A program made the translations under genes and the position numbers. Source: Planctomycetales bacterium (GTDB lineage Bacteria > Planctomycetota > JAKEIC01). From it: a stretch of 32,767 nucleotides of DNA. Location of the stretch: positions 1 through 32,767 of the forward strand of contig JAKEIC010000161.1 of assembly GCA_022614695.1 (NCBI GenBank), written 5' to 3'. The notes under the pieces were generated by a model that saw only the letters and a program-made list of their open reading frames with translations, was not told the origin of the DNA and did not search any database. Positions 11,731 through 22,152 of this stretch are shown piece after piece; the stretch's first letter is position 1, and each line of letters begins with the position of its first letter.

Positions 11731-11736
11731 AGTCTA
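11731..11736 (-). promoter_or_regulatory. Candidate -10 box for a leaderless kinase transcript
   Basis: Minus strand TAGACT ends nine bases before the GTG start and no ribosome binding site lies between them. This fits the TAnnnT-short-gap-start pattern also seen at 21983, 27058 and 31035. The rest of the 11722-11881 gap holds only a weak GAGCCG/CGGCTC hairpin. Confidence 0.35.
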
Positions 11737-11881
11737 CACCGAGCCGGACGGCTCATGGCGTAGGGCACTCCGACACTCGGGGCCCGCGAGACCCCCCGCA
11801 GCCCCATGAGTGAGGAATCGCGCCTTCCCTTACACATACTGGACGTGCGCGGCTCCGGATCGCGCGCTTGTTGGACTCCTT

Positions 11882-12754
11882 CTAGAACGTGATCACGGCC
11901 CCGAGAGCGACGATCCACCCCGACATCCGGTAGTAGACCCGGCCCATCTGGTACGCGATGGGCCCAGTGCTGCTTGAGAGTGTCGGGTCCCACTCGATCT
12001 CCAGCGGGTCCACCCACAAGTAGCCGACGTGGAACCGCATCCCGAGTAACTGCGTCCGGCGCCCTTCTCCCCACCGCTGCCGTTGCCACGGCGTTGGGAA
12101 GTTGAACCCGAGGGTCAGCCCTAGCCGCGCCGCAGCCTGGAATCCGTTTCCATCGCCTTGGCCACTCGCCAGCACGAGCGGCGGCACGTTCACATCGGCT
12201 TCGTAGTCCACTTCCACGTCCGCGTTCATCCCCCCGAGGGCGACCTCTCCCCGCAGGAGGAACTCTCGTCCGGGCGACAGGTATGTCAGCCCACCCGACG
12301 CGAAGACCCCGAACATGGCACCCGCGCTGAACCGCACGCGCTCAACGGCGCTCGCGAAGCCGGGGCCTGGGGCCATGGACCATTCGTCCTCGCCTTCCGC
12401 TGGGTACTCGTAGACCAGTTCCGGGCCGAGCCCGAGCCGCACACCTCCACCGATCGGGAGAAGATGCCGGTAGTACCAGCGGTTCCCCGCGCTGAAATCC
12501 GAGGGGACCGAGACAGGTGACGACGGAAGTGTGTCGATGTTCGCGAACTTGGCTCCGAAGCGGAGCCGCTGGCCGATCGGGAAGAAGGCGTCCACGCCGA
12601 TCTCGTTCAAGGGGCGCGCGGCCCTGGGCGATCCCGTCCCGAGATCGGCGCCGCGCCCGCCACTCCACTCCTGGGCCGCCGCGCTTCGAGCCCCGAGTAC
12701 GCCGACCAGTATCGCGCCGACAAGCTCGCGCACGGCCCCCTGTCGTCGGTTCAT
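11882..12754 (-). CDS. Exported beta-barrel-like protein, 290 aa
   Basis: Probable outer-membrane or surface protein of unknown family. The signal peptide (1-27) ends ARSAAAQ, with cleavage likely before Gln. The rest alternates short amphipathic strands and turns (RLRFGAKFANID, VRLGLGPELVYEY, RFSAGAMFGVFASGGLTYLS, FHVGYLWVDPLEIEW) and ends in an aromatic residue (AVITF), as outer-membrane barrels do. An upstream extension of 60 residues in the same frame has no signal character and overlaps the Kelch gene, so the ATG at the signal peptide is preferred, although only a weak GAGCAGG precedes it. It follows the Kelch lipoprotein gene by 44 bp on the same strand and is probably co-transcribed. 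Confidence 0.75.
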   Translation of the reverse strand: MNRRQGAVRELVGAILVGVLGARSAAAQEWSGGRGADLGTGSPRAARPLNEIGVDAFFPIGQRLRFGAKFANIDTLPSSPVSVPSDFSAGNRWYYRHLLPIGGGVRLGLGPELVYEYPAEGEDEWSMAPGPGFASAVERVRFSAGAMFGVFASGGLTYLSPGREFLLRGEVALGGMNADVEVDYEADVNVPPLVLASGQGDGNGFQAAARLGLTLGFNFPTPWQRQRWGEGRRTQLLGMRFHVGYLWVDPLEIEWDPTLSSSTGPIAYQMGRVYYRMSGWIVALGAVITF

Positions 12755-12798
12755 CCTGCTCGCCGCCTGCACGGTGCGCTCTCTCGGGTGGCGTGCAA

Positions 12799-13920
12799 CT
12801 ACGGCGAGTAGAGGTAGCTGCTCGTCCTGGGACCGGAGAGGCCCTGCCCCCCGGCGATCAAGACCTTTCCGCTCTGCAGCAGGGTTGCCGTGTGCCAGAA
12901 GGGGGCCGACGGCAGAGTGGCTGCGGGGCTCCAAGTCCCCAGTGCCGGGTTGTAGAGTTCGGCGGTCACGCTGCCGGTTGATGGAATGCCGACGATGAAC
13001 CCGAGCCCAGTTCCGAGGAACACAGCTGGATCATCGTCGCGCCCGGCGCTCATCGAGCCCGTCGAGGTCCACGTTCCTGTCGAGGGGTCGTAGAGTTCAG
13101 CGCTGGAGAGCCACGCCGCGCCAGCGGATCCACCGGCGACCAGCACTCTCCCGTTGGACAGGAGGACCGCCGCATGACGTGTCCGCGCAGTCGCCAGGGA
13201 TCCGGTTGCCGTCCACGTTCCCGTGCTCGGGTTGTAGATCTCGCACGTGGCCGTGGTAGTAGCGGGCGAGCCAGTCTGGCCGCCGACGACCAAGACCCGT
13301 CCGCTCTGTAGCAGGGTCGCTGTGTGCTCATACCTCCAGGTGGCGAGCCCTCCCGTCGCCGTCCAGGTTCCCGTGCTCGGGTTGTAGAGCTGTGCGCTGG
13401 TCAATGCCGCTCCCGCATAGAGAACACTGCCGGAGCCGAGCAGGGTGAGAGTGTGGTCCCAGTCACCGGCGAGCAGGGAGCCGGTTGCAGACCAGTTCCC
13501 GGTGCCCGGGGTGTAGATCTCGGCGCTGCTGATGGAGGAGCTGGTCGCGTTGTCCCAGCCGCCCGCGACCAGGACGCTGCCGCTCGCGAGCAGTACAGCC
13601 GCGTGGAAGGTACGGGCGGTCGAAAGCGACCCCTGCGTCAGCCACGTACCGGTCCCCGGATCGTAGATCTCGCTGCTCGCCAGGGACGGCTGCGGCGATC
13701 CCGCTCCTTCCCCACCGGCCACGAGAACCCTCCCGCTGTTGAGCAACGTCGCCGTGTGGCTGTCCCGCGCTGAGTTCATCGAGCCGGTCGTGCTCCAGGA
13801 GTTGCCGGACGGCCCCGAGGGCGGTGGCGAGGCTGGGCTACTCTTCTTGTGCGTGCAGCCGGTGGCCACACCGCCGACCGAGACCCCGAAGACGATGGCG
13901 AAGACGAGCCCGCGCTTCAT
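12799..13920 (-). CDS. Seven-Kelch-repeat lipoprotein
   Basis: 373 residues. The signal ends with a lipobox (ATGC, Cys22) and a short Ser/Pro linker (27-40) leads to seven Kelch units of 45-50 residues. Each has the pattern TWTATGSLATARTRHAAVLL, a GRVLVAGG strand and a SSAELYDPSTG turn. Seven units make a complete Kelch beta-propeller. Unit three has GAALTS in place of the double-glycine motif, and unit six carries FIVGIP, so these blades are degenerate. The ATG follows GCAGGAGGGGCAC, a strong ribosome binding site. Probably first gene of a two-gene unit with the beta-barrel-like protein, which could act together with it at the outer membrane. The ligand is unknown. Confidence 0.9.
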   Translation of the reverse strand: MKRGLVFAIVFGVSVGGVATGCTHKKSSPASPPPSGPSGNSWSTTGSMNSARDSHTATLLNSGRVLVAGGEGAGSPQPSLASSEIYDPGTGTWLTQGSLSTARTFHAAVLLASGSVLVAGGWDNATSSSISSAEIYTPGTGNWSATGSLLAGDWDHTLTLLGSGSVLYAGAALTSAQLYNPSTGTWTATGGLATWRYEHTATLLQSGRVLVVGGQTGSPATTTATCEIYNPSTGTWTATGSLATARTRHAAVLLSNGRVLVAGGSAGAAWLSSAELYDPSTGTWTSTGSMSAGRDDDPAVFLGTGLGFIVGIPSTGSVTAELYNPALGTWSPAATLPSAPFWHTATLLQSGKVLIAGGQGLSGPRTSSYLYSP

Positions 13921-14033
13921 GTGCCCCTCCTGCGGCGACCCTGGCCGCGCGAGAAGCGGGCCGACCGTCCGCCTTCCGGGAGTTTGTCTCCGACGTCGCG
14001 GAGAGAGGCCGGCGCCGTCACCTTTGGGAACCC

Positions 14034-14149
14034 CGGCCTGCTAGAGCACGGAGAAGCCGCGGGTGCCGACGCCGACCAGAAGTCGGCGCGGATGCGGCTC
14101 CTCCATGAGACCGGGCGGCGCGCTGCCTTCCCGGGGCTCTAGCAGGCCG
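14034..14149. ncRNA. Structured element closed by a 14-bp perfect inverted repeat
   Basis: CGGCCTGCTAGAGC (14034-14047) is the exact reverse complement of 14136-14149. Inside, AGCCGC pairs with GCGGCT and CGCCGAC with GTCGGCG around a CAGAA loop (14070-14088). The nested pairing suggests a folded RNA of about 116 nt or a pair of binding sites. No known RNA family is recognised, and no promoter or terminator is clear. Confidence 0.35.
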
Positions 14150-14257
14150 AGAGCAAGCTAACCCAGGCCCCTGGCAGAGTCAAGCCAACCGGAGGTCCTC
14201 CCCAAGCAACGGCTCCACTCCTCCTGGGCGACTGAGGCATCAGTCCGCATCTGGAGG

Positions 14258-14305
14258 GGCCGTTCTCGGCCGTTCTCGCGCGTATATCTATGTGGAGGCG
14301 CCTCC
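14258..14305 (+). promoter_or_regulatory. Putative promoter-operator of the ribozyme operon
   Basis: GGCCGTTCTC is repeated in direct tandem (14258-14277), followed by the AT-rich TATATCTA (14283-14290), a plausible -10, and the perfect 12-bp palindrome GGAGGCGCCTCC (14294-14305) at the expected transcription start. This would give a leader of roughly 95 nt to the first gene at 14391. Confidence 0.45.
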
Positions 14306-14390
14306 GGCTCACCTAGAGCCGGACGGTAGCTTCCCGAACCGGCCCGGGGGGCGTACCCCCGGGCCGGACGGCACCTCGAAGGAGGTGGGC

Positions 14391-14669
14391 ATGACGATCG
14401 TTCTGCTGGTCGTGCTCATGCTCCTCATCGGGTGGCACGTCTGCGACTGGATGTACCGGTTCGGCCCCCTGCGGAGGAGCCGGGTCCGGTTCAAGGTCTA
14501 CCTCGACCCGGGGGCGGGGGCGTCGCGGCCGTCCGGAGGTCCCCAGCAGGACCTCCGGCGGCAGCAGCCGCCTCCCCGGGACAACGGGTGGAACCAGAAC
14601 CGGAACCCCGGTCCCCCTCCGCAGGGCGGCCCGGGCGGCGGGCACCAGGAGCAGAGGCGGCTCCTGTGA
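14391..14669 (+). CDS. Small membrane-anchored proline-rich protein, 92 aa
   Basis: Unknown function; first gene of the operon that ends at 19402. Residues 2-17 (TIVLLVVLMLLIGWHV) form one membrane helix. A basic stretch (RRSRVRFKVYL) follows, then a low-complexity tail rich in Pro, Gln, Gly and Asn. The predicted orientation is N-terminus out, tail in the cytoplasm, on the positive-inside rule. The start is firm: GAAGGAGGTGGGC directly precedes ATG. The gene lies close to the next genes, with no ribozyme between them. Related small anchored proteins occur in prophages and integrative elements, but I cannot name a family. Confidence 0.7.
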   Translation: MTIVLLVVLMLLIGWHVCDWMYRFGPLRRSRVRFKVYLDPGAGASRPSGGPQQDLRRQQPPPRDNGWNQNRNPGPPPQGGPGGGHQEQRRLL

Positions 14670-14676
14670 GGAGGAG

Positions 14677-14886
14677 GTGAGCCGTGACCAGGACCAACGG
14701 CCCGGAGGCGCGAGCGCCCCCGGGTTCCCGCCCGACGGCCCCCGGGTCATCGTCCCGGGCGGGTGGCGCCGGCGAGCAGCTCGTAGCTGGTTTGCCGGCG
14801 GCCAAGAGGGGCCGAAGGAGGAGACATGGGATCTATGGCGGTGGTGCCGGTCCCGAACGCGCAGTCGTACTCGCCGGGGGAGCTGA
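14677..14886 (+). CDS. Possible small basic protein, 69 aa (uncertain)
   Basis: A GTG-started frame seven bases after the previous stop, with GGAGGAG immediately upstream and high GC in third positions over its first half. The product contains GFPPDGPRVIVPGG and an Arg/Trp-rich end and has no recognised domain. It overlaps the start of the clamp-like gene at 14826 by 61 bases in another frame. An alternative GTG at 14684 in the next frame has better Shine-Dalgarno spacing (GGAGGTGAGCC) but worse codon composition. One or neither may be translated. The RNA here also folds (CAGCT/AGCTG, GGCC/GGCC), so the stretch may be a leader instead. Confidence 0.3.
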   Translation: MSRDQDQRPGGASAPGFPPDGPRVIVPGGWRRRAARSWFAGGQEGPKEETWDLWRWCRSRTRSRTRRGS

Positions 14887-15503
14887 TCTTCGGGCCGTAC
14901 AAGGTCGAGCCCGAGATGAGGAACCTCGTGTGGGTGTGCGCCTACGACGCGGACCCGAGGGGTCTGCATCGCGTGGCGCTCTACCCGAAGGTGCCGGCTC
15001 TCGTGGCGAGCGACGGCACGCGCGTCGTGACGGTGCCACTCATTCCGGTGGATCCCTCGAACTACGAGAGGGAGGGACAGGCGAGGGAGTTCGGGCCGGA
15101 CTGCGGGCGGGCGGAGGTCTTGCTGCCGAAGGAGGCGTACGAGCAGACGCCCCGGCAGATCGGACCGGCCTACCCGATCCGGGGCGTCTTCCTCAAGGTC
15201 GAGAAGCAGCGGTTCGGCGGGCTCTGGCAACTGGTCGTCGAGACGTACCACGCGAACGGGAATCCGGTCGCGAAGACGTACGACGTCGAGCCCGCTTCCG
15301 GGTACCCCGACATCGGGGAGGCCTGGAACCGTCACTACAGGCCCGGAGGGGCCTCGGTGACGGTGAACGCGAAGCGGCTCTCCGGCCTTGCGGAGTGCCT
15401 CGGGCCGGACGGGACCGCCCGGATCATGGTCCGGGGACCGAACGACCCGGTGATCGTCCGGGGCCAAGGCCTCGGCGCCGGGATCCTGATGCCGGTCGCG
15501 TGA
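14826..15503 (+). CDS. Two-domain beta-clamp-like (DnaN-related) protein A
   Basis: 225 residues, paralogous to the protein at 16367-17080. Shared landmarks are GPY..(K/L)(V/R)P near the N-terminus, LH(R/H)VALY..VP.LVA(S/T)DG (about 47-66), which resembles the end of DnaN domain 1, a (Y)P(D/E)(I/V)G turn (160-163), and a C-terminal ILMPVA, matching the DnaN ending (V/L)MP(M/V). True DnaN has three domains and about 370 residues, so this is a two-domain form, similar in size to phage gp45 or PCNA. It may act as an element-specific clamp or clamp modifier at replication forks. The ATG follows AAGGAGGAGAC. No ribozyme precedes it. The next gene follows after a hammerhead-containing gap. Confidence 0.6.
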   Translation: MGSMAVVPVPNAQSYSPGELIFGPYKVEPEMRNLVWVCAYDADPRGLHRVALYPKVPALVASDGTRVVTVPLIPVDPSNYEREGQAREFGPDCGRAEVLLPKEAYEQTPRQIGPAYPIRGVFLKVEKQRFGGLWQLVVETYHANGNPVAKTYDVEPASGYPDIGEAWNRHYRPGGASVTVNAKRLSGLAECLGPDGTARIMVRGPNDPVIVRGQGLGAGILMPVA

Positions 15504-15580
15504 CCTCTCGGGGTTCGGGAAACCCGGGCTCGTAGCCCGGGTCGCCGGACGGCTCGTGGCCGTCCGGCCTGACGAGAGGA
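15504..15580 (+). ncRNA. Type II hammerhead ribozyme 1 (near-canonical)
   Basis: Order GAAA (15519-15522), stem III (A15522-U15542, eight pairs, loop TCGTA), cleavage base C15543, stem I (15544-15553 with 15559-15568, ten pairs), core CUGACGA (15569-15575). All catalytic bases are present. The oddity is stem II: two extra G bases precede GAAA, so only UUC/GAG pairing with a bulge, or CCUCUC (15504-15509) with GAGAGG, is possible. Self-cleavage is predicted after 15543, leaving a 44-nt leader on the 15588 gene. Confidence 0.65.
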
Positions 15581-15587
15581 GGAGAAC

Positions 15588-16280
15588 ATGACGACGAACG
15601 GGGCGGAGCGTCCGCGCTTCAAGTTCGAGGGCATCCACGGGGTCCACGAGGACCTCGAGGCCGCCCTCAAGGGTCTCGACGGTCGAGGCGCCCTCCGGGA
15701 CGTCCTGGACGAGTTCTTCGAGGACCTGTGGAACTCGGGGACCCCGATCGAGGAGTGCGTGAGCGACGCGACCTACCAGAAGTGGCGGACGCACTGCTAC
15801 TACGAGCTGGAGAAGCAGGGCGTCTCTTCTTCCTCTCCGGAAGGATGGGACGAGGCGAGCGAGGAGGCCGTGAACGATATGGACGGCTTCCAGACCTGGA
15901 TCGAGGAGAAGTTCTGGGACGACAAGGAGTTCCAGGACGAGCTCCTCCAGGGCTACACGGGAGACATCGTGAGCGAACGGTGGCCGATCGTCGGGGTGTT
16001 CTCGCGCGGACTCGAAGCGGTGATCCCGCTCGGGGAGGTCGCGGGCTTCTGCCCCTGCTGCTGGGACCCGATCTCGAAGGAGTTCGGGTTGCGGCGCGGG
16101 GAGCGGGAGCCCGAGCCGAACATCGTCTGCGCGAAGTGCGGCCTCGACGAGAAGGCCTCGGAAGCCCAGATGCGCTACCAGCGCTCGTTCGACGTCGTTC
16201 CGGAGTGGGGCGGACTGACGATCCAACAGCTCGTCGCGGAGTCCCGGGCGGCTCAGGGCGAGCCGCTCTGCGGGACCTAG
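15588..16280 (+). CDS. Acidic protein with C-terminal zinc ribbon, 230 aa
   Basis: Unknown function. The first 150 residues are acidic and mainly helical (Asp/Glu-rich, with several Trp). A four-cysteine zinc-ribbon-like module lies at about 155-184: CPCC (155-158) and CAKC (181-184), separated by 22 residues. The last 35 residues are again helical. Such ribbons often bind nucleic acid or a polymerase partner, which would suit a neighbour of clamp-like proteins, but this is inference. The ATG follows GAGGAGGAGAAC. It is the first gene of the operon preceded by a hammerhead ribozyme, and a variant ribozyme follows one base after its stop codon. Confidence 0.75.
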   Translation: MTTNGAERPRFKFEGIHGVHEDLEAALKGLDGRGALRDVLDEFFEDLWNSGTPIEECVSDATYQKWRTHCYYELEKQGVSSSSPEGWDEASEEAVNDMDGFQTWIEEKFWDDKEFQDELLQGYTGDIVSERWPIVGVFSRGLEAVIPLGEVAGFCPCCWDPISKEFGLRRGEREPEPNIVCAKCGLDEKASEAQMRYQRSFDVVPEWGGLTIQQLVAESRAAQGEPLCGT

Positions 16281-16354
16281 CGAATCCCGGCCTCGCGGCC
16301 GGGATCGGCCCGGGAGGAGTCCGTCGCGGCCGGGCCGCGGAGAGCCCGCGACGG
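16281..16354 (+). ncRNA. Hammerhead-related pseudoknot element (variant core), copy a
   Basis: After CGAA come stem III (16285-16292 with 16297-16304, loop TCGC), U16305, stem I (16306-16313 with 16330-16337, eight pairs) and the variant core CGGAGAG (16338-16344). Stem I's loop holds CCGTCGCGG (16321-16329), which pairs perfectly with CCGCGACGG (16346-16354), making a nested pseudoknot. The closing pair of stem III is U-A instead of the usual A-U. Whether it cleaves is unknown. If it does, the site would follow 16305, leaving a 61-nt leader. Confidence 0.5.
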
Positions 16355-16366
16355 CGAAAGGAGAAC

Positions 16367-17080
16367 ATGTCGAAGTCGAAGGAGCCGGAGGCGACCTACG
16401 GCCCGTACGTGCTGCGACCGCAGCACCGGCACCTGGCGAAGATCGCGGCGAAGGAGGCGTCACGGTACGCGCTCCACCACGTCGCGCTCTACTCGGAGGT
16501 GCCGATGCTCGTCGCGACGGACGGCCGCAAGATCGTCTACTGGCCGATCGAGAGGGCGAAGGACACGGAGTCGGAGGAGGTGATCCCTCCGGATCGCCTC
16601 GACCCGAAGGAGTTCGGCGAGCCGGTCTGCCTCGTCCCGAGCGAGCTCTTCTCGCGCCTCCCCGGAGGGAGCGCGCGGGAGGGGTGGAGGCGGGACAAGG
16701 CGACGCGGACGGCCCCGAGGCTCCTGCTCCGGTTCGAGAGGAACGGGACGAAGGACGCGAAGGAGAGCCTCACGTACACGGCGACCGTGGAGACGTGGGT
16801 GTACGGCAAGTCCGTGGCATCCGCGGCCTACGAGTGCCCGACCGAGGGACGGTACCCCGAGGTCGGGGCCGTGTTCGTGAAGCCCAAGCGGAAGCACGTC
16901 CGCTTCGCGTTCGACATCTCGTACCTCTCGGACCTGGCGCAGGTCCTCGGGCCGCCCGACAACGCGGTGCGCTTCTACTTCGAGGACGAGAAGAGCGGGA
17001 TCCGGATCGACGTGCCGGCGAAGGGGGAGACCCCGCAGCCGGTCGCCGTTCTGATGCCCGTGACGCTGCAAGAGGGCTAG
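16367..17080 (+). CDS. Two-domain beta-clamp-like (DnaN-related) protein B
   Basis: 237 residues, clearly paralogous to the 14826 product and the better match to DnaN. Residues about 46-66 (LHHVALYSEVPMLVATDGRK) resemble the DnaN LVATDG strand. The final 70 residues (FAFDISYLSDLAQVLGPPDN, then VRFYFEDE, ending VAVLMPVTL) align in order with the end of DnaN domain 3 (FNVSYLxDxLxAL...VxVxxxD...YVxMPxxL). The middle domain is missing, giving the size of a PCNA or gp45 subunit. Two such paralogs could form a hetero-oligomeric ring. No DNA polymerase or clamp loader is encoded nearby, so any ring would rely on host factors or serve regulation. The ATG follows GAAAGGAGAAC right after pseudoknot element a. 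Confidence 0.68.
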   Translation: MSKSKEPEATYGPYVLRPQHRHLAKIAAKEASRYALHHVALYSEVPMLVATDGRKIVYWPIERAKDTESEEVIPPDRLDPKEFGEPVCLVPSELFSRLPGGSAREGWRRDKATRTAPRLLLRFERNGTKDAKESLTYTATVETWVYGKSVASAAYECPTEGRYPEVGAVFVKPKRKHVRFAFDISYLSDLAQVLGPPDNAVRFYFEDEKSGIRIDVPAKGETPQPVAVLMPVTLQEG

Positions 17081-17131
17081 AGGGAGGACGAGGAGGGAAA
17101 GTCCGCCCCCGACGCCGAGTCCAAGCCCGAT
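17081..17131. other. Spacer before hammerhead 3
   Basis: A 51-nt spacer, the longest between a stop codon and a ribozyme in this operon. No structure or coding potential is evident. Confidence 0.3.
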
Positions 17132-17203
17132 GCCGAAACCCAGGCCGCGTAGGCCCGGGTTGGGCCGTGCCGCGCCCGTGGCCCCTGACGAGAGAGGCGC
17201 GGC
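17132..17203 (+). ncRNA. Type II hammerhead ribozyme 3 with loop I pseudoknot
   Basis: GAAA (17135-17138), stem III (A17138-U17160, eight pairs around one A/C mismatch, loop GCGTA), cleavage base U17161, stem I (17162-17167 with 17179-17184), core CUGACGA (17185-17191). Stem II is only C17134-G17192. It is supplemented by pairing of loop I GCCGCGCC (17169-17176) with GGCGCGGC (17196-17203). This copy has both the canonical core and the long pseudoknot of the variant copies, so it links the two forms. Predicted leader on the 17217 gene: 55 nt. Confidence 0.8.
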
Positions 17204-17216
17204 GAGAAGGAGAACC

Positions 17217-17711
17217 ATGGGTACCAGGGCGACGGTCCATTTCCACCACGCGGAGGAGAAGACCCCGAGCGCGATCGTCTACCGTCACTACGACGGTTAC
17301 GTCGTGGGCCTCGGGGCGGACCTCTTCCGCTTCTTCGAGGACGTGAAGGCGCAGACGAAGGACACGAGGTTCGGCGACCCGTCGTACCTCGCGGCGAAGT
17401 TCATGGTCTGGCAGGCGCGCGAGAGCGCCAAGACGTACGACCCGAAGACCCGGGTCGAGACGTCGCACGCGAACGAGCGCCCGCTCGACTTCCTGTCGGT
17501 CGGGATCCTCTTGGAGGACCCGGACGACATCGAGTTCCGCTACCACGTCCTCTGCGGGAGCGGGGAACCGCCCGAGGTTCGATTCGAGGAGCGCGGGGGG
17601 TGGGATCCCCCGAAGTGGACGAAGTGGACCGTGCTCACGAGGAAGCTCATCGGGAAGGAGAAGGCCAGGATCGAGGCCAGGCTGAAGGCCGCGGTCGCGG
17701 CGTCCCGGTGA
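17217..17711 (+). CDS. MGTRA-type conserved phage/plasmid protein, 164 aa
   Basis: The N-terminus MGTRATVHFHHAEEK followed by AIVYRHYDGYVVGLGADLFRF is characteristic of a conserved family found in phages, plasmids and integrative elements, where MGTR(A/S)T, a strand and (Y/W)xHxDGY recur. No activity is established to my knowledge. The middle has LAAKFMVWQARE and a VGILLEDPDDIEFRYHVLC strand pair, and the C-terminus is a basic helix. The ATG follows GAGAAGGAGAACC. The gene sits between two canonical hammerhead ribozymes and is a good sign that the operon belongs to a mobile element. Confidence 0.65.
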   Translation: MGTRATVHFHHAEEKTPSAIVYRHYDGYVVGLGADLFRFFEDVKAQTKDTRFGDPSYLAAKFMVWQARESAKTYDPKTRVETSHANERPLDFLSVGILLEDPDDIEFRYHVLCGSGEPPEVRFEERGGWDPPKWTKWTVLTRKLIGKEKARIEARLKAAVAASR

Positions 17712-17780
17712 GCCTCGAAACCGACCGGCTTCGGCCGGCGGTTGGCCGGGGACCCCGTAGGTCCCCGCCCTGACGAGAGC
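17712..17780 (+). ncRNA. Type II hammerhead ribozyme 4 (canonical)
   Basis: CUC|GAAA (GAAA 17717-17720), stem III (A17720-U17742, nine pairs, one bulged A, UUCG tetraloop), cleavage base U17743, stem I (17744-17754 with 17760-17769, one bulged C), core CUGACGA (17770-17776), stem II CUC (17714-17716) with GAG (17777-17779). All conserved bases of the hammerhead are present. It begins directly after the TGA of the 17217 gene. Predicted leader on the 17794 gene: 50 nt. Confidence 0.9.
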
Positions 17781-17793
17781 GAAGGAGGGACAC

Positions 17794-18108
17794 ATGGTAT
17801 CTATGGTCGACGCGGCGGGTGGAGACGAGCGGACGGAGCGGATCCGGGGAGCCCCGCGGCCGCACTGCGGCCGCGGGTTCGCGTCGGATCTCGCGACACG
17901 GAGGACGGGCGACGGCCGGATCGAGGCCGTGGTGCGGTTCGAGGGGGGCTGCGAGGGGTGCTTCAAGAACTTCCTCGAGTGGCCGCTCGAGCGCCAGCAC
18001 CAGGTCCTGTTCGGCTCGGGGCACGGTCCCATCGTGCGGATCGCGAGGGACGACAGGGAGCCGCTCCTTGCGCTCTATCTCTGCGCCACGCCGAAACCCG
18101 CCCCATAG
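17794..18108 (+). CDS. Small hypothetical protein with CEGC motif, 104 aa
   Basis: Unknown family. The first 40 residues are basic and Gly/Arg-rich, followed by IEAVVRFEGGCEGCFKNFLE (about 48-67) and a C-terminal strand-rich part (GPIVRIARDDREPLLALYLC). The CxxC pair plus a later Cys and His could bind a metal, but the count is too low to claim a zinc finger. The ATG follows GAAGGAGGGACAC and a second in-frame ATG lies three codons later. The TAG stop lies in the loop and base of a duplicated stem III hairpin, so the end of the frame and the start of the ribozyme region overlap. Confidence 0.65.
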   Translation: MVSMVDAAGGDERTERIRGAPRPHCGRGFASDLATRRTGDGRIEAVVRFEGGCEGCFKNFLEWPLERQHQVLFGSGHGPIVRIARDDREPLLALYLCATPKPAP

Positions 18109-18115
18109 GCGGGTC
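18093..18115 (+). ncRNA. Duplicated hammerhead stem III (GAAAC-hairpin-GUC)
   Basis: GAAA (18093-18096) opens a perfect seven-pair hairpin (A18096-U18114, loop CCATA) followed by C18115: exactly the stem III cassette of a hammerhead, with no stem I or CUGANGA behind it. The stop codon of the 17794 gene (18106-18108) lies in its loop and stem. The complete element that follows has the same CCATA loop, so this looks like a tandem duplication. Confidence 0.55.
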
Positions 18116-18192
18116 GAAACCGCGGGCCCATAGCCCGCGGTCGGGCCTGGGAAACCAGGCCGCGCCGCCAGGCCCCGGAGAGCCGGCGCGGC
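18115..18192 (+). ncRNA. Hammerhead-related pseudoknot element (variant core), copy b
   Basis: CGAAA (18115-18119), stem III (A18119-U18141, nine pairs, loop CCATA), C18142, stem I (18143-18150 with 18168-18175), variant core CGGAGAG (18176-18182). A pseudoknot pairs GCCGCGCCG (18159-18167) with CGGCGCGGC (18184-18192). The stem I and pseudoknot strands abut with no base between, as in copies a and c. A competing local hairpin GGCCUGG/CCAGGCC is also possible. Predicted leader on the 18205 gene: 62 nt. Confidence 0.5.
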
Positions 18193-18204
18193 CAGAAAGG
18201 GACG

Positions 18205-18504
18205 ATGGATCTCACGAAGTGCCTCACGCGCGCGCCGTTCCCGACAGGGGTCTACGAGTACCCCCGCCCCGGGGACCGCGTGCAGCTCGAGTTCGTCCGG
18301 TTCGCCGACGAGATGGAAGGTCTCGTCGTCGAGCGGGTCTGGGCTCGGGTCACGCGCGTCACCGGGAGCCGGTGCGAGGGCGAGGTCGAGAGCGACCCCG
18401 TCATCTCGCCGGTGCGCCGCGGCTCGATCGTGGAGTTCGAGTCGCAGCACGTCCAGGCGATCGCGCGCGCGGAGAGGACTGTCGAAACCCTGGGGGCGGC
18501 GTAG
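18205..18504 (+). CDS. DUF2314-like small protein, 99 aa
   Basis: The central part (PRPGDRVQLEF at 21-31, ERVWARVTRVTGSRCEGEVE at 45-64, SDPV, and RGSIVEFESQHVQAIA) follows the order of the DUF2314 family, in which GDxVxLxF, (E)RMWVxV, a G-x-L/V-x-N-x-P strand and Gd-V-x-F...hI recur. The function of that family is not established. The usual Asn before the Pro strand is replaced, so assignment is moderate. The start ATG follows AGAAAGGGACG. The stop codon (18502-18504) sits in the loop and stem of the next ribozyme-like element, so translation to the end of the gene would unfold that stem. Confidence 0.6.
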   Translation: MDLTKCLTRAPFPTGVYEYPRPGDRVQLEFVRFADEMEGLVVERVWARVTRVTGSRCEGEVESDPVISPVRRGSIVEFESQHVQAIARAERTVETLGAA

Positions 18505-18567
18505 CCGCCCTGGGGTTGGGCCCGGAGACGGGCCGCGCGGCCGGGCCCCGGATGAGCCCGCGCGGCC
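18483..18567 (+). ncRNA. Hammerhead-related pseudoknot element (variant core), copy c
   Basis: CGAAA (18483-18487), stem III (ACC/GGU plus GGGCGGC 18494-18500 with GCCGCCC 18504-18510, loop GTA), U18517, stem I (18518-18525 with 18541-18548), variant core CGGAUGAG (18549-18556), one base short of copies a and b in divergence from canonical CUGAUGAG. Pseudoknot: GGCCGCGCGG (18531-18540) with 18558-18567, ten pairs. It overlaps the end of the 18205 gene by 22 bases. Predicted leader on the SymE-like gene: 63 nt. Confidence 0.5.
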
Positions 18568-18580
18568 GGCAAAGGAGCAC

Positions 18581-18892
18581 ATGCAGGAGAGGAGACACGT
18601 GACGGTGTGCAGGGGTCCTCGCTCGAGGGCCGCCGACGGTGGAGACCGCACGGTGCCGGAGCTCCGGCTGCGCGGGGAGTGGCTCCGCAAGGCCGGCTTC
18701 GGGATCGGGACCGTGACGGAGGTCCTCGTGGACGACGCGAGGCTCACGATCACGGCCCGCGCGAAGGCGGGTCCGCCGCCGACGGCGGCCGAGAGGGAGC
18801 GCTTCGCCGAGGAGGAGTACATCGAGGCGCTCCGGGAGGACCTCCGCCCCGACACCCACGACTTCTTCGAGCGCGACCCGGACGAGGGGTAG
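18581..18892 (+). CDS. SymE-like toxin-family protein, 103 aa
   Basis: Residues about 26-60 (PELRLRGEWLRKAGFGIGTV, then a VxVxxxxLxIT strand) match the core of the SymE family: (I/L)RLxGxWLxxAGFxxG, then a swapped-hairpin/AbrB-like strand ending in LxI. E. coli SymE is the toxin of a type I toxin-antitoxin system and is normally repressed by an antisense RNA; some SymE proteins condense nucleoids or cut RNA. Here an acidic C-terminal helix (70-103, rich in Glu and Asp) is added, which is unusual and could modulate activity. The ATG follows GCAAAGGAGCAC. No antisense promoter is obvious, so control through the ribozyme-like leader is a possible alternative. It sits in the mobile element, where it could act in maintenance or defence. 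Confidence 0.65.
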   Translation: MQERRHVTVCRGPRSRAADGGDRTVPELRLRGEWLRKAGFGIGTVTEVLVDDARLTITARAKAGPPPTAAERERFAEEEYIEALREDLRPDTHDFFERDPDEG

Positions 18893-18905
18893 CCCCAGTC
18901 CGGGC

Positions 18906-18969
18906 GCTCGAAACCCCGGCACCGCCGGGGTCGGCCTCGGACCGCGTAGGCCGAGGCCCTGACGAGAAC
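18906..18969 (+). ncRNA. Type II hammerhead ribozyme 7 (canonical)
   Basis: GAAA (18910-18913), stem III (A18913-U18931, eight pairs, loop ACC), cleavage base C18932, stem I (18933-18940 with 18951-18958, eight pairs, ten-base loop), core CUGACGA (18959-18965). Stem II pairs GCUC (18906-18909) with GAAC (18966-18969), with one C/A mismatch. The GAAAC...GUC arrangement is textbook. Predicted cleavage after 18932 leaves a 52-nt leader on the last gene. Confidence 0.9.
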
Positions 18970-18984
18970 GAAAGGAGAGGGCAC

Positions 18985-19359
18985 ATGGGAGAGAGGAGCG
19001 TGAACCATGCCAACGGCCATCAACCGCTCGGATCAAAGGCGAGGCGCGCGGGCTGGCGCCCGGAGGACTACCTCCGGCGTTTCCCGCGCCTGGTCGCGCA
19101 CGTGATCTGCAGGTCGCTCGGGTACGCGACGCCGATATGCGCGGCGAGGATCCTGAGGGACGCCGACCGCGGGGGTATGAACGGGTGCGAGTGGATCGCG
19201 TCCTGCTACGGGGGGGACCCTGTTCCCGCCGTGCGGCTAGCGATCCGCGGCCGGCACCACCACCGCGGGTACATGGCGGACTACGGGACCGCCCTCGCCC
19301 TCGTGCGCGAGGTCCTCGCGCACGGGGAGCCGAACGGGATGCTGGCGAGCTGGTTCTGA
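18985..19359 (+). CDS. Hypothetical protein, 124 aa, last gene of the ribozyme operon
   Basis: No family recognised. The protein is basic and His/Arg-rich at the N-terminus, with a helical middle (EDYLRRFPRLVAHVICRSLG) and a C-terminal part containing DYGTALALVREVLAHGEPNG. The composition is compatible with a small nucleic-acid-binding or regulatory protein, but nothing more can be claimed. The ATG follows AAAGGAGAGGGCAC, directly downstream of canonical hammerhead 7. A longer frame upstream is open only because it reads through the SymE-like gene and ribozyme in another phase. An intrinsic terminator begins four bases after the stop codon. Confidence 0.65.
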   Translation: MGERSVNHANGHQPLGSKARRAGWRPEDYLRRFPRLVAHVICRSLGYATPICAARILRDADRGGMNGCEWIASCYGGDPVPAVRLAIRGRHHHRGYMADYGTALALVREVLAHGEPNGMLASWF

Positions 19360-19363: not shown

Positions 19364-19402
19364 ACGGCCGGTCGGGCCACAAGCCCGGCCGGCCGTTTTT
19401 TT
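19364..19402 (+). terminator. Intrinsic terminator of the ribozyme operon
   Basis: A GC-rich stem of about 13 pairs (CGGCCGG.CGGGC with GCCCG.CCGGCCG, one U-G pair, loop CACAA) is followed by seven T residues (19396-19402). It marks the end of the transcription unit that started near 14.3 kb. Confidence 0.85.
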
Positions 19403-20236
19403 GTCGGCGCATTTTGCGCGGCTAGATCAGCCAGGACCCGTGACCGCGGGTTCGCCGCGAGGTTCGTGCTTGGGACCCCGGCAGTGTTTCACCTTGCGAA
19501 TGCCTGTCAGATGCCTGGGGGTAGGGGTTTCCACCGCTCACACGGTACCGTCCCGGTACCGGAACGGTACCGCCTTGACCCCATCCGACCCACGTCCGAC
19601 CCCATTCTTACGTCAGACGGACGCCGGACTGGGGTCACGGCGAATCGGGAACTATCCGTGAGGCCAAGAATCGAGAGAACGTAGGACACCGTCCGCGCGA
19701 CGCAGGTCGGCTACCCGTGCCCTGGCGTCCTTCTCTCGGGATCTCGGGACACGCCCCAACGGAGTTCTCCTTGCATTGGGGTGCGACGGCCCGTTATCCT
19801 CCGGGATGCACGGACGGCAAGGGACGGAGCGTGGCCCGTCCCCAGTCGGCCCCTACGGGCCCCACGTCCCGGTTTCGGTGGCACGTAGGGAGGGCCGGAT
19901 GACTCGGAGGCGAAGGCTGTACTTCCGCCGGCGCCGGACCCGCTACTCGGGTCGGGCCCGGCAGGGACGGTCTCGGGCGGGAGAGTGGGGCCGTCCCCGC
20001 GAGAGGCGACGGAGGGGTTCCCGACTGGGCCCGCGGCGGCATGCACTGCTGCGGCTGCGGCGCCAGGCTCGCCCGGCGGCCGCGCTTCGCCGAGCCCGTA
20101 CCCGGCGCAGGCGAACTCGCGGTAGCAGGACGCGCGCCCCGAGCCCGCGAGGCGACTCAGAACCGCACCGCTGGTTGAGGCAGGGCGGCGGCGGCGCTTC
20201 CGGGCGAGCCACCGCCCACCCTGTGGGGATGCGCTC
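19403..20236. other. 830-bp gene-free region with a helically phased site array
   Basis: No gene with a ribosome binding site and domain is seen; open frames here are Arg-rich mirror frames. A 45-codon frame from 20041 starting MHCCGCGARL is the only one with a hint of a metal motif but has no Shine-Dalgarno. The main content is the array at 19544-19605 plus GACCCCA facing TGGGGTC (19598-19636). It could be an origin, partition or control region of the mobile element. Confidence 0.4.
19544..19605. promoter_or_regulatory. Array of 11-bp-phased GGTACC and GACC sites
   Basis: GGTACC occurs at 19544, 19555 and 19566, each exactly 11 bp apart and each within CGGTACCG. GACCC then occurs at 19577, 19587 and 19598, within GACCCCAT (19577 and 19598) and TCCGACCC (19584 and 19595, again 11 bp apart). 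One site per helical turn puts all on the same DNA face, as in operators or iterons bound by a cooperative protein. Confidence 0.5.
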
Positions 20237-20551
20237 GTGAGCGAGGCGCTACCACCTCCGGTCCCGCGGACTTGGCTCCTACCAGCAGAGGCCGCCAGAG
20301 CACTCGGGCTCCCCGGGCGGGAGGCCCTCAACCGGCTCGTCCGCGCCGAAGGATTGCCGGTCGTCCGCGTAACCCACGGCAACGGCGGCTACGTCGTTCT
20401 CGTGGCCGACCTGCTGCGTTGGCTCGAAGGCCGGCGGGTGGACAACGCGAATCTCCGAGAGGCATCGGAGAAGGTCCGGGCCCGGACGCCGCGTAGGTCG
20501 CGATCAGTGGGAAGTCCCTCGACGCCAGCGGCGGAGAGGACCGGGGCGTAG
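20237..20551 (+). CDS. Excisionase/HTH_17-like DNA-binding protein, 104 aa
   Basis: Residues about 12-68 (TWLLPAEAARALGLPGREAL, VRAEGLPVVRVTHGNGGY and LVADLLRWLEGRR) have the order of excisionase-type winged HTH proteins of the MerR/AlpA group: an N-terminal 'L(s/p)xxEAAxxLG' helix pair, a basic wing with GLPxVR, and a closing 'L..WL' helix. Such proteins direct recombinase polarity during excision or act as element regulators. The start GTG has only a weak GGGGAT upstream. The C-terminal 35 residues are basic and disordered. The gene converges on the integrase gene with 19 bp between stops, the position expected of an element control gene. Confidence 0.65.
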   Translation: MSEALPPPVPRTWLLPAEAARALGLPGREALNRLVRAEGLPVVRVTHGNGGYVVLVADLLRWLEGRRVDNANLREASEKVRARTPRRSRSVGSPSTPAAERTGA

Positions 20552-20570: not shown

Positions 20571-21731
20571 CTAGACGGCCGCGCGCTTCGCAGGATTGGC
20601 CGCAGGCCGGTCCAGGAGCCTCCGGGCCTCCTCGGCCGCAGCGCCCGGCGCGAAGTGCAGGTACTTCTGCGCAGCCGCGAGGCTCCGGTGGCCGCTCACT
20701 CGCATGAGCGCCGTCAGTGGGAGCCCCTGCGAGACCATCCAAGAGAGCGCGACGTGACGACAGTCATGAAACCGGAACTCCTTCCCAAGCCCGGCCGCGA
20801 CCGTCGCGCGCTTCCAGTCCTTCTGCATCATGCCCGACCACTTCTCGGGCAGGTGGGCGAACACGCGGTCCGGCTTCGTGGACGGGTCGAACGGGACCGG
20901 ACCGCGCTGCGTCTCCAGCTCGCGCAGGTTCTCTGCGACGTCCTTCGGGAGCGGGACCTCGCGCGGCGTCCCGTTCTTCGACTTGGGGATCCGGATGACC
21001 CGGCGACTCCAGTCCACGCTCTGCCAGCCGAGTCCGAGGGTCTCCGACTCGCGGAGCCCCGTCCGGAGCGCCAGGTGGACGACGGCGCGGAGGTAGCCGG
21101 GACACGAGGCGACGAGCTTCTCCTGCTGCTCCCGGTCGAGGAAGGGGACCTCCCGCTTCTCCTCCCGCTCGCCCTCGATCCCGGCCGTGGGGTTCTCCCT
21201 GGCGCAGTTGAGCACGATCGCCCTCTTGAACATCGCGCCGAGGACCGCCTTGTCCCGGTTCCGCGTCGCCTTGCTCGCGCCCTCGGCCTTCCGCTTCGCG
21301 AGGAAGCCCGCCACGTCCTCTCGCCGGATCTCGTCGAGGTGGCGTCCCCGGAACGCGGGGACGAGGACGCTGCGGATCTTCGAGGTCTCGGACTGGATCG
21401 TGCTCTCGGTGTGGGAGCCCTCCACGAGGCGGAGGTACTCCTCGGCCCAGTCCTCGAACAGTCTCCGCTGGACCGGGCGGAGGTTGCCCATCTTGGCCTG
21501 GTCGTACTCCTTCCAGCGGTCGCGGAGGAACTTCTGCGCGTCCCGACGGTCGGGGGAGACCGCCCTCTCCATCCTGCGCCCATCGGGGAGCGTGAAGCGA
21601 ACGTACCAGCGGCCGAGGACCCGGCCCGAGTGGGGGCTCCTCTTCCTGTAGATCCGGCCGAAGTCCCTCCGCCCGCGGCCCCGCGCCGTCTCGGTTCGCT
21701 CGACCGTCTCCATCGTCGTCGTCTTGCTCAT
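20571..21731 (-). CDS. Tyrosine recombinase (phage-type integrase)
   Basis: 386 residues. An N-terminal arm-binding region (about 20-80, with GRWYVRFTLPDGRR), a SAM-like core-binding domain (90-180) and a catalytic domain (195-370) are present. Catalytic residues can be placed: Arg227 in TGLRESE, Lys250 or Lys252 in the PKSKNG hairpin, His322 and Arg325 in HDCRH, His348 in GHRS and the nucleophile Tyr357 in QKYLHF. It should be active. The ATG follows GGGGAGGGGAAGCG and overlaps the stop of the XRE gene as ATGA, so the two are translationally coupled. The enzyme presumably inserts the element at tRNA-Cys, whose 3' fragment lies 345 bp upstream of its start. Confidence 0.95.
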   Translation of the reverse strand: MSKTTTMETVERTETARGRGRRDFGRIYRKRSPHSGRVLGRWYVRFTLPDGRRMERAVSPDRRDAQKFLRDRWKEYDQAKMGNLRPVQRRLFEDWAEEYLRLVEGSHTESTIQSETSKIRSVLVPAFRGRHLDEIRREDVAGFLAKRKAEGASKATRNRDKAVLGAMFKRAIVLNCARENPTAGIEGEREEKREVPFLDREQQEKLVASCPGYLRAVVHLALRTGLRESETLGLGWQSVDWSRRVIRIPKSKNGTPREVPLPKDVAENLRELETQRGPVPFDPSTKPDRVFAHLPEKWSGMMQKDWKRATVAAGLGKEFRFHDCRHVALSWMVSQGLPLTALMRVSGHRSLAAAQKYLHFAPGAAAEEARRLLDRPAANPAKRAAV

Positions 21732-21976
21732 CGCTTCCCCTCCCCGCGCTCCACGCGCGCGATCCACGTCTCGATCGCCCTCACGTACAGGCCCCTCGGG
21801 CGGAACGTCCCGGACTCCCACCGCACGATCGTCCCGACGTTCACGCCAAGGTGCTCGGCCAGGCGGGCGAGCGTCATGCCCGCGGCCATCCTCGCGCGGA
21901 TGAGCCGCGCCCCGAACTCCGAGCCAGGGGGCCTCTCGCTCCGCGCTCCGAACCGTCCTCGTCCCTTCCCGGCCAC
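21728..21976 (-). CDS. XRE-family HTH regulator, leaderless GTG start, 82 aa
   Basis: Helix-turn-helix at about residues 22-60 (FGARLIRARMAAGMTLARLA, then HLGVNVGTIVRWESG), the classic XRE/Cro pattern ending in WExG. It probably represses its own promoter and the coupled integrase gene. I chose the GTG at 21976 because the frame upstream runs through a strong promoter whose predicted transcription start coincides with this codon; no ribosome binding site exists. Longer in-frame starts would begin in the tRNA fragment and are implausible. The stop overlaps the integrase ATG (ATGA). Confidence 0.75.
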   Translation of the reverse strand: MAGKGRGRFGARSERPPGSEFGARLIRARMAAGMTLARLAEHLGVNVGTIVRWESGTFRPRGLYVRAIETWIARVERGEGKR

Positions 21977-21982
21977 ACTTGT

Positions 21983-22011
21983 ATCATACGCATACGCGTA
22001 TATAATATCAA
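21983..22011 (-). promoter_or_regulatory. Sigma-70-type promoter with palindromic operator for XRE-integrase operon
   Basis: Minus strand TTGATA (22011-22006), a 17-bp spacer and TATGAT (21988-21983), each one mismatch from consensus, in a short AT-rich island. Position +1 falls on or next to the GTG at 21976. The spacer holds the palindrome ATACGCGTAT (21992-22001) and a directly repeated ATACGC, a likely XRE operator that would block RNA polymerase. Confidence 0.75.
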
Positions 22012-22076
22012 GCTCCGAGACTCCTCCCGGGAGTGGTAGACTGGGGGGCACGGGAGGGGCACGGCGTCGCAAGTCC

Positions 22077-22145
22077 TTGTCGGTAATGGGTCGGCAAGGG
22101 ATTGCAAATCCCTCATCCCCGGTTCAAATCCGGGTGCCGCCTCCA
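22077..22145 (+). pseudogene. 3' fragment of tRNA-Cys(GCA), element attachment site
   Basis: D arm (GTCG 22079-22082 with CGGC 22092-22095), anticodon stem AGGGA/TCCCT (22097-22101, 22109-22113) with anticodon GCA at 22104-22106, T arm CCCGG/CCGGG with TTCAAAT loop, acceptor 3' strand TGCCGCC, discriminator T and CCA (22143-22145), all typical of bacterial tRNA-Cys. The acceptor 5' strand (expected GGCGGCA) is missing, so it cannot fold into a complete tRNA. Such fragments mark the edge of an element integrated in a tRNA gene. Confidence 0.8.
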
Positions 22146-22152
22146 GCAGACC

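What the first reader, a model, noticed from the sequence alone, without database searches (positions are those of the whole stretch)
15504..18970. An operon punctuated by seven hammerhead-type self-cleaving RNA elements, one in every gap
From the gap before 15588 to the gap before 18985, all seven intergenic gaps hold an RNA with the type II hammerhead order: GAAA, stem III hairpin, U-H, stem I hairpin, then CUGACGA or a variant. Each starts near the upstream stop codon and ends just before the next Shine-Dalgarno. Predicted cut sites lie 44-63 nt before the next start codon. Cleavage would leave each upstream message ending in the stem III hairpin and each downstream message starting with the stem I hairpin, turning a polycistronic transcript into single-gene mRNAs with protected ends. 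Isolated bacterial hammerheads near prophage genes are known. A run of seven in one operon acting as processing punctuation would be unusual and may be undescribed.
Basis: partly seen in the sequence, partly recalled or inferred. Interest (0 to 1): 0.97.

Follow-up and report, generated by a model that had tools for sequence, protein, structure and literature searches.

The report
Operon cut by many hammerhead ribozymes
A small integrated mobile element in an uncultured bacterium carries a ribozyme-like RNA, built on the hammerhead plan, in seven successive gaps between the genes of one operon; four have the normal hammerhead core and three an altered one, and similar series of hammerheads occur in phages, so this looks like a known but little-explored way of cutting long messages into single-gene ones.

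Summary
All seven gaps from 15504 to 18984 contain the type II hammerhead layout, with predicted cuts 44-63 nt before the next start codon. They are not equal. Four copies (c1, c3, c4, c7) carry the canonical CUGACGA core; shuffled windows give 0.08 such matches on average. c3 adds a 7-bp loop I-tail pseudoknot. c1 has a mispaired stem II and a competing fold. Three copies (c2, c5, c6) carry CGGA(U)GA: U4 replaced by G, N7 missing in two. They keep the other CUGANGA/GAA residues and have 9-10 bp pseudoknots that covary with c3. Rfam gives no match above threshold and three below it. The operon lies beside a tyrosine integrase in a bacterial contig. 'May be undescribed' is too strong: clustered hammerheads flanking single prophage genes, and the processing idea, were published in 2011 (PMC3088659). 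Phage contigs hold up to 20 type II hammerheads per record; Streptomyces phages Hank144 and R4 have series too. New here: the full set of gaps in a bacterial integrative element, and the altered-core copies, whose activity is untested. Most likely role: co-transcriptional cutting into single-gene mRNAs.

The parts
14391..14669 (+). g0, 92 aa, N-terminal hydrophobic stretch then Pro/Gly/Gln-rich; first gene of the operon
   Evidence: translation; no family
14826..15503 (+). g1, 225 aa, paralogue of g3
   Evidence: 27-28% identity to g3; no family
15519..15576 (+). c1: canonical hammerhead core; stem III 15522-15542, predicted cut 15543|15544, stem I 15544-15568, CUGACGA 15569-15575; G10.1/G11.1 mismatch; competing helix CCUCUCG/CGAGAGG and UCGG/CUGA
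   Evidence: RF02276 27.7 bits; R1 28.0
15588..16280 (+). g2, 230 aa, orphan with a CPCC...CAKC cysteine motif
16282..16354 (+). c2: altered core CGGA-GA (U4G, N7 absent) at 16338-16343, GAAU with U15.1-A16.1, predicted cut 16305|16306, stem I 16306-16337, 9-bp pseudoknot 16321-16329 with 16346-16354
16367..17080 (+). g3, 237 aa, paralogue of g1; weak C-terminal match to phrog_3007 (RusA-like)
17135..17202 (+). c3: canonical core CUGACGA 17185-17191, predicted cut 17161|17162, stem I 17162-17184, 7-bp pseudoknot 17170-17176 with 17196-17202, one-pair stem II
17217..17711 (+). g4, 164 aa, phrog_1987-like (unknown function)
   Evidence: (E 6.4e-6)
17717..17779 (+). c4: canonical core CUGACGA 17770-17776, predicted cut 17743|17744, stem I 17744-17769, 3-bp stem II, no significant pseudoknot
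   Evidence: RF02276 25.1 bits; 18.3 bits
17794..18108 (+). g5, 104 aa
   Evidence: no significant family
18093..18115 (+). extra GAAAC-hairpin-GUC block in front of c5; its loop contains the g5 stop codon (18106-18108)
18116..18193 (+). c5: altered core CGGA-GA 18176-18181 (U4G, N7 absent), predicted cut 18142|18143, stem I 18143-18175, 10-bp pseudoknot 18158-18167 with 18184-18193; competing local hairpin GGCCUGG-GAAA-CCAGGCC
18205..18504 (+). g6, 99 aa; its stop codon 18502-18504 lies inside stem III of c6
18484..18567 (+). c6: altered core CGGAUGA 18549-18555 (U4G only), predicted cut 18517|18518, stem I 18518-18548, 10-bp pseudoknot 18531-18540 with 18558-18567
18581..18892 (+). g7, 103 aa, SymE-like (PF08845)
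   Evidence: E 3.1e-10, over cut-off; NCBIfam SymE below its cut-off
18910..18970 (+). c7: canonical core CUGACGA 18959-18965, predicted cut 18932|18933, stem I 18933-18958, 2-bp stem II
   Evidence: RF02276 34.0 bits, E 3.4e-4; 32.8 bits
18985..19359 (+). g8, 124 aa, last gene
   Evidence: no family
19365..19403 (+). GC-rich hairpin followed by a T run: likely intrinsic terminator of the operon
   Evidence: read by eye; the pattern scan did not list it
20237..20551 (+). small helix-turn-helix protein
   Evidence: PF12728 E 5.9e-6, 26.9 bits, just below the 27-bit cut-off
20571..21821 (-). tyrosine recombinase (integrase)
   Evidence: PF00589 E 8e-29; NCBIfam recombinases below cut-off

Best explanation
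The operon g1-g8 of a small integrase-bearing mobile element is punctuated by seven related type II hammerhead elements, one per gap. During transcription each active copy folds as it leaves the polymerase (GAAA block, stem III hairpin, U-H cleavage site, stem I hairpin, core) and cuts its own strand between stem III and stem I. The upstream mRNA then ends in the stem III hairpin after its stop codon. The downstream mRNA starts with the stem I hairpin, or with the stem I/pseudoknot fold, 44-63 nt before its start codon. So a polycistronic transcript becomes single-gene mRNAs with structured ends and independent lifetimes. Shown here: the anatomy, its non-randomness for the canonical copies, the relatedness of the copies, pseudoknot covariation, and similar layouts in phages. 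Inferred: that the copies cleave (likely for c3, c4 and c7; doubtful for c1; open for c2, c5 and c6), that cleavage is co-transcriptional, and that the purpose is to uncouple expression of neighbouring genes.
For: Seven of seven gaps, 44-63 nt from cut to start codon. Four canonical core-plus-stem matches against 0.083 expected from shuffles, none on the other strand. Three sub-threshold RF02276 matches in the right gaps. Model R1 from four copies recovers the other three. 24 pairs in three helices: 93.5% of 92 cells paired, 8 pairs changed on both sides (5 of them in the pseudoknot), 0 of 500 shuffles as high on both, and slid structures at 34-52% paired. The pseudoknot between loop I and the 3' tail is the known type II tertiary contact, and one-pair stem II is known (PMC3088659). 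Similar layout elsewhere: 12 of 120 fetched phage loci hold 5 or more canonical elements, 8 hold 7 or more; in Hank144 7 of the 8 annotated gaps of 90 nt or more hold hammerheads and none of the 11 shorter gaps holds a whole one. Published tandem sets cleave in vitro and one set in E. coli (PMC3088659).
Against: No Rfam match at the gathering score. c1 mispairs next to the core, and its minimum-energy fold pairs the core bases. Three of seven copies have a substitution at U4 not seen in a convincing element elsewhere in my scans. For c3, c5 and c6 the free fold lacks stem I; enforcing it costs 10.0, 8.2 and 9.1 kcal/mol before the pseudoknot is credited. c2 has no significant folding energy. 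Stop codons sit in or next to stem III in several copies, so translating ribosomes may block folding. No transcript data were available for this genome. No homologue of the operon proteins was found beyond the g1/g3 pair in the searches made, so there is no evidence across species. In three phage records only 11 of 22, 5 of 10 and 3 of 5 intervals are mostly one ORF.
Confidence: 0.62

Rival explanations
1. Only the canonical copies cleave. c2, c5 and c6 (and perhaps c1) are former hammerheads kept as non-cleaving structured RNA, for example mRNA-end protection or a pseudoknot that tunes translation of the next gene.
For: U4G and loss of N7; all nine folding position-4 variants in one phage-contig scan are U4C, none U4G. 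Stems and pseudoknot covary while the core has changed. The shared U4G suggests one event followed by duplication (inference).
Against: Ten other core residues (C3, G5, A6, G8, A9, G10.1, C11.1, G12, A13, A14) are identical in 3 of 3 variants, although only 33 of 64 other ungapped columns are (rough P about 0.001, assuming independent columns). This suggests the core is still under selection.
Confidence: 0.45
2. The elements are stem-loop punctuation in general (mRNA stabilisers or partial terminators between genes), and their likeness to hammerheads is a side effect of GC-rich hairpins.
For: Very GC-rich hairpins; the gaps before g0 and g1 also hold GC-rich hairpins without a hammerhead core.
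Against: CUGACGA and GAAAC stand exactly where the hammerhead core needs them, 4 against 0.083 by chance; the three sub-threshold RF02276 hits fall in the gaps; the pseudoknot topology matches type II hammerheads.
Confidence: 0.1
3. Cleavage is used for ligation or circularisation (circular or spliced RNA products) rather than for processing.
For: Hammerheads can ligate (own knowledge), and several predicted cut sites lie on one transcript. The duplicated stem III block before c5 shows block shuffling.
Against: PMC3088659 could not detect circular or spliced products. Placement between genes with a Shine-Dalgarno-like stretch after each element fits processing better.
Confidence: 0.05

Closest known systems
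Type II hammerhead ribozyme, Rfam RF02276 (clan CL00010)
   Same: Order GAAA - stem III hairpin - UH - stem I hairpin - CUGANGA; short stem II; loop I-tail pseudoknot in c2, c3, c5 and c6
   Different: No copy reaches the gathering score; pseudoknots of 7-10 bp; U4G in three copies, N7 missing in two; c1 lacks G10.1-C11.1
Clustered prophage hammerheads (Agrobacterium triple around ardA, C. scindens, A. caulinodans; PMC3088659)
   Same: Several hammerheads flank single genes or short blocks, many near integrase genes; processing to single-gene mRNAs proposed
   Different: Here every one of seven consecutive gaps is occupied, none of the operon proteins matched a phage structural family, and three members have an altered core
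Hammerhead series in phage contigs, e.g. Streptomyces phages Hank144 and R4 and an IMG/VR record with 20 RF02276 matches (found here)
   Same: Elements at many gene boundaries, often close after a stop codon and before the next start codon
   Different: Found with a canonical-core pattern, so mostly canonical by selection; the only convincing position-4 change seen is U4C
Pseudoknot-containing hammerhead of known structure (PMC11300833; abstract, introduction, core and comparison sections read)
   Same: Loop I-tail pseudoknot, one-pair stem II (G10.1-C11.1)
   Different: In c2, c5 and c6 the residue before the turn is G, and in c2 and c5 the core strand is six residues long, between seven in that hammerhead and four in pistol

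Membership tests
Type II hammerhead ribozyme | CUGANGA strand and GAAA strand at the three-way junction | tested here: met
   Canonical in c1, c3, c4, c7
Type II hammerhead ribozyme (c2, c5, c6) | CUGANGA strand | tested here: not met
   CGGA-GA in c2 and c5, CGGAUGA in c6. These are described as hammerhead-like, not as proven members
Type II hammerhead ribozyme | A15.1-U16.1 pair and H at 17 | tested here: met
   6 of 7; c2 reads as U15.1-A16.1 with U17, a natural variant reported to self-cleave less efficiently (PMC3088659)
Type II hammerhead ribozyme | Stems I and III closed by hairpin loops, stem II open | tested here: met
   7 of 7 by sequence; c3, c5 and c6 have a lower-energy nested alternative to stem I when the pseudoknot is ignored
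Type II hammerhead ribozyme | G10.1-C11.1 pair | tested here: inconclusive
   Read from the sequence: 6 of 7; G-G in c1, where the predicted fold is different
Type II hammerhead ribozyme | Rfam RF02276 score at or above gathering (37 bits) | tested here: not met
   Best 34.0, 27.7 and 25.1 bits; the other four not listed at E 5
Type II hammerhead ribozyme | Loop I-tail pseudoknot (common, not obligatory) | tested here: met
   c2 9, c3 7, c5 10, c6 10 bp (shuffle P below 0.0005, 0.011, below 0.0005, below 0.0005); not significant in c1, c4, c7 (P 0.20, 0.30, 0.77)
Type II hammerhead ribozyme | Self-cleavage at the predicted site | not testable with these tools
   Needs in vitro transcription

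The most novel reading that the evidence does not exclude
c2, c5 and c6 are an active hammerhead subfamily with a re-built core: U4 of the U-turn is replaced by G (a GNR turn instead of UNR) and, in two copies, N7 is lost so that C3-G8 closes a three-base loop, with an unusually long (9-10 bp) pseudoknot compensating. One operon would then mix fast canonical and slower altered ribozymes, so that each gene boundary is cut at its own rate and the operon's gene dosage is set by ribozyme kinetics.
Probability: 0.3. Interest if true: 0.8.

Novelty: new variant of a known kind. Interest (0 to 1): 0.62.

Why it matters
What bacterial and phage hammerheads are for is called an open question in the passages I read of PMC6155905, and the reason for their association with phage genes is called unknown in PMC10085705. 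A complete run of seven gaps in one operon, together with phage records that carry 8 to 20 hammerheads, many of them between genes, makes the processing idea directly testable, for instance in the named Streptomyces phages Hank144 and R4. If the U4G copies cut, they would widen the accepted hammerhead core, and the current covariance model would be missing such members, as it misses c3 here.

Tried and rejected
Homologues of the operon: tblastn of g2, g3 and g4 in 'phages', g2 and g3 in viral contigs, the g1/g3 alignment in genome contigs, g3 in 199 genomes. None was found apart from g1 itself and two weak matches to g3 (E 2.9e-4, 8.1e-4) that I did not follow. g5-g8 and g0 were not searched this way. 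No protein structure was predicted.

Similar RNA elsewhere: R1 in the own genome finds only the four training copies at E 0.1. In 392 genomes of the phylum, 13 others match at 24-28 bits; of the 6 alignments shown none keeps GAAA block, stem III and core together (L029 has CAGAUGA but no stem III), so I took them as chance. DNA pattern for the c5-like core: 11 matches, none hammerhead-like when read by eye. U4G with the canonical GGCAG tail: 6 loci; 3 of them, one near-identical sequence, pass a loose stem test with a 4-pair stem III, and I judged them weak. Pattern for the canonical copies in genome contigs: 19 loci; 1 of 19 (L049, Planctomycetia) passes the loose test at the pattern's place, with a strong stem III but a 4-pair stem I and no second element nearby; I left it as unproven.

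The promoter and terminator pattern scan was uninformative. No direct repeat of 11 bp or more was found between 13851-14400 and 21781-22300, so no att sites are claimed. HDV-like and pistol readings of c2, c5 and c6 were considered and dropped because the GAAA block, U-H and C3...G8A9 fit the hammerhead.


Full report
WHAT IS THERE. The window is the whole of contig C150 of a 4.99 Mb draft genome, 369 contigs, 88% complete. Left and right of about 14.2-22 kb several proteins are ordinary bacterial ones: a kinase with TPR repeats, a sigma-54 activator, Kelch, HEAT/cyclophilin and thioredoxin-type proteins. One ORF at 5187-7580 also matches tail PHROGs. Between them lies a run of nine genes on the + strand (14391-19359), a hairpin with a T run at 19365-19403 (read by eye), a small helix-turn-helix protein, and a tyrosine recombinase on the - strand (20571-21821, PF00589 E 8e-29). 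I read this as an integrated mobile element; I found no att repeat. The operon proteins are mostly orphans: g7 is SymE-like, g1 and g3 are paralogues, g3 and g4 have weak PHROG matches.

THE SEVEN ELEMENTS. Each gap from g1/g2 to g7/g8 holds one element. c1: GAAA at 15519, cut after 15543, CUGACGA. c2: GAAU at 16282, cut after 16305, CGGA-GA. c3: 17135, cut after 17161, CUGACGA. c4: 17717, cut after 17743, CUGACGA. c5: 18116, cut after 18142, CGGA-GA. c6: 18484, cut after 18517, CGGAUGA. c7: 18910, cut after 18932, CUGACGA. The distance from the cut to the next ATG is 44-63 nt. All cut sites are predictions.

MORE THAN CHANCE. The canonical stem-and-core scan gives 4 places on the + strand, all in gaps, and none on the - strand; 60 dinucleotide shuffles give a mean of 0.083 and at most 1. 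The altered-core scan gives 2 (c5, c6), while shuffles, scanned with a slightly stricter GAAA prefix, give a mean of 0.117 and at most 2, so that scan alone proves nothing. Rfam at the gathering score gives nothing. At E up to 5 it lists Hammerhead_II at 18906 (34.0 bits, E 3.4e-4), 15515 (27.7) and 17713 (25.1), below the 37-bit cut-off; c2, c3, c5 and c6 are not listed. A covariance model from c2, c3, c5 and c6 (R1) finds c7, c1 and c4, which it had not seen, at 32.8, 28.0 and 18.3 bits; seven other matches in that search are at 10.7-14.1 bits. In 391 other genomes of the phylum 13 have matches, at 24-28 bits, so c7 and, narrowly, c1 stand above that background and c4 does not. Folding energies against 200 shuffles: z -4.29 (c1), -0.49 (c2), -2.19 (c3), -2.20 (c4), -2.46 (c5), -1.73 (c6), -2.65 (c7), and -1.30 for the gap before g1; this method ignores pseudoknots.

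COVARIATION. On the alignment of c2, c3, c5 and c6 with stem III, stem I and the pseudoknot, 93.5% of 92 cells pair and 8 of 24 pairs change on both sides, 5 of 9 in the pseudoknot. No shuffle of 500 reaches these, and sliding partners by 1-3 columns drops pairing to 34-52%. With four related sequences, chosen because they share the fold, this is support and not proof. The pseudoknots are 9, 7, 10 and 10 bp in c2, c3, c5 and c6 (shuffle P below 0.0005 for three and 0.011 for c3); c1, c4 and c7 have no significant one (P 0.20, 0.30, 0.77). Loop I to 3'-tail pseudoknots, and stem II of one or two pairs, are reported for type II hammerheads (PMC3088659).

NOT ALL ALIKE. c3, c4 and c7 look like good hammerheads. 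c1 has the core letters, but G10.1 faces G, and the lowest-energy fold pairs CCUCUCG with CGAGAGG and UCGG with CUGA, burying the core. c2, c5 and c6 share G at position 4, and c2 and c5 also lack residue 7. c2 reads best as U15.1-A16.1, a variant reported to cleave less well (PMC3088659). In these three copies the other core positions C3, G5, A6, G8, A9, G10.1, C11.1, G12, A13 and A14 are the same in 3 of 3, whereas 33 of 64 other ungapped columns are. If columns were independent that would have a chance of about 0.001. The core strings were typed by hand. In the pseudoknot hammerhead crystal the chain turns sharply between U4 and G5 (PMC11300833). A GNR turn is structurally close to a UNR turn (my own knowledge, from no call), which makes U4G thinkable but does not show activity.

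SIMILAR LAYOUTS IN PHAGES. My scan of these 120 found 0 elements in 2, one in 76, two in 17, three in 11, and four or more in 14; 12 had five or more, and 8 had seven or more (the 12 are confirmed for one strand). Some of these contigs are near-copies of each other, and loci are pieces of records. I gave 11 records, chosen mostly for their richness, to a full search with RF02276: 20, 11, 8, 7, 6, 7, 8, 7, 9, 8 and 3 matches. One of the records is Streptomyces phage Hank144. Against its annotated genes, 7 of 8 gaps of 90 nt or more hold hammerheads (8 elements), one gap of 255 nt holds none, none of 11 shorter gaps holds a whole element, and a ninth element overlaps an annotated start. Phage R4 has 9 by the same scan, several of them inside annotated ORFs; the opposite strands of both regions have none. 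In three other records, intervals between neighbouring elements are more than 75% filled by one ORF in 11 of 22, 5 of 10 and 3 of 5 cases. So 'one element per gene boundary' is common but not universal.

POSITION 4 ELSEWHERE. In 41 of the 120 loci, those with two or more canonical elements on one strand (162 elements), a scan for ten kinds of core change listed 17 hits on the element strand and 3 on the other; the only convincing one was U4C, one sequence present in three related contigs. A pattern for any non-U at position 4 with a GCCANCC tail found 11 loci; 9 fold as hammerheads and all 9 are U4C, in four distinct sequences; the 2 that do not fold have G. Two other U4G patterns gave 3 of 6 loci (one near-identical sequence) and 2 of 120 that pass a loose stem test, all judged weak. 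So U4G was not seen in a convincing element in these scans, which cover only some tails.

HOW IT WORKS, MOST LIKELY. Each gap is cut as it is transcribed, giving single-gene mRNAs whose 3' end is the stem III hairpin and whose 5' end is the stem I hairpin. The anatomy is shown; cutting and purpose are inferred. Stop codons inside hairpins (g5 in the block before c5, g6 in stem III of c6) suggest that cutting and translation compete. In c3, c5 and c6 the free fold replaces stem I by other pairings (-38.2, -50.0 and -59.8 against -28.2, -41.8 and -50.7 kcal/mol with stem I enforced; pseudoknot duplexes of -14.7, -25.0 and -26.0 not included; c2 differs by only 0.9). In c5 and c6 the alternative is a local hairpin that would form first, which could delay folding.

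KNOWN OR NEW. PMC3088659 (abstract, parts 1-2 of 3 of Results, part 1 of 2 of Discussion, find passages) describes type II hammerheads in bacteria, clusters that flank single prophage genes or short blocks, the processing idea, and cleavage of tandem sets. PMC10085705 (passages) notes enrichment of hammerheads near Mu-like phage genes and near each other. PMC6155905 (passages) calls the prokaryotic roles open. In nine searches of the open-access library, the rows shown (some lists were cut, e.g. 15 of 217 and 15 of 96) named no paper on operon-wide hammerhead series, on hammerheads of Streptomyces phages, or on U4G hammerheads; subscription papers and preprints are largely not covered, and figures and supplements of PMC3088659 were not seen. 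I therefore file this as a new variant of a known kind.

Noticed in passing
L187 (IMG/VR record of L063), 1-16000: 23 canonical type II hammerheads by scan in 16 kb; the RF02276 search gives 20 in the record, all within its first 14 kb, on one strand.
   Followed up: partly
L191 (Streptomyces phage R4, NC_019414.1), 3308-3356, 6260-6308, 8628-8676: Hammerheads lie inside the tiny annotated ORFs gp75.1, gp67.1 and gp60.1, which may therefore not be genes.
   Followed up: partly
L193, L196, L197 and the L113 group: Natural U4C type II hammerheads in phage contigs, four distinct sequences.
   Followed up: partly
window 14296-14390 and 14670-14825: GC-rich hairpins with GUA-type loops stand before g0 and g1 but lack a hammerhead core; R1 scores 9.6 and 7.6 bits there.
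   Followed up: partly
window 18093-18142: The GAAA-stem III-GUC block is duplicated in front of c5, with the g5 stop codon in the loop of the first copy.
   Followed up: partly
window 18143-18175 and 18518-18548: c5 and c6 can form a local hairpin that competes with stem I and the pseudoknot, a possible folding delay.
   Followed up: partly
L049, element strand near 6398 of the reverse complement: A lone hammerhead-like match in a Planctomycetia contig, strong stem III but weak stem I, possibly over a gene's 3' end.
   Followed up: partly
L007-L013: Type II hammerheads over the Rfam cut-off, one listed per genome, in 7 of 391 other genomes of the phylum.
   Followed up: no
window 18581-18892: g7 is a SymE-like protein flanked by two of the ribozyme elements (c6 and c7).
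   Followed up: no
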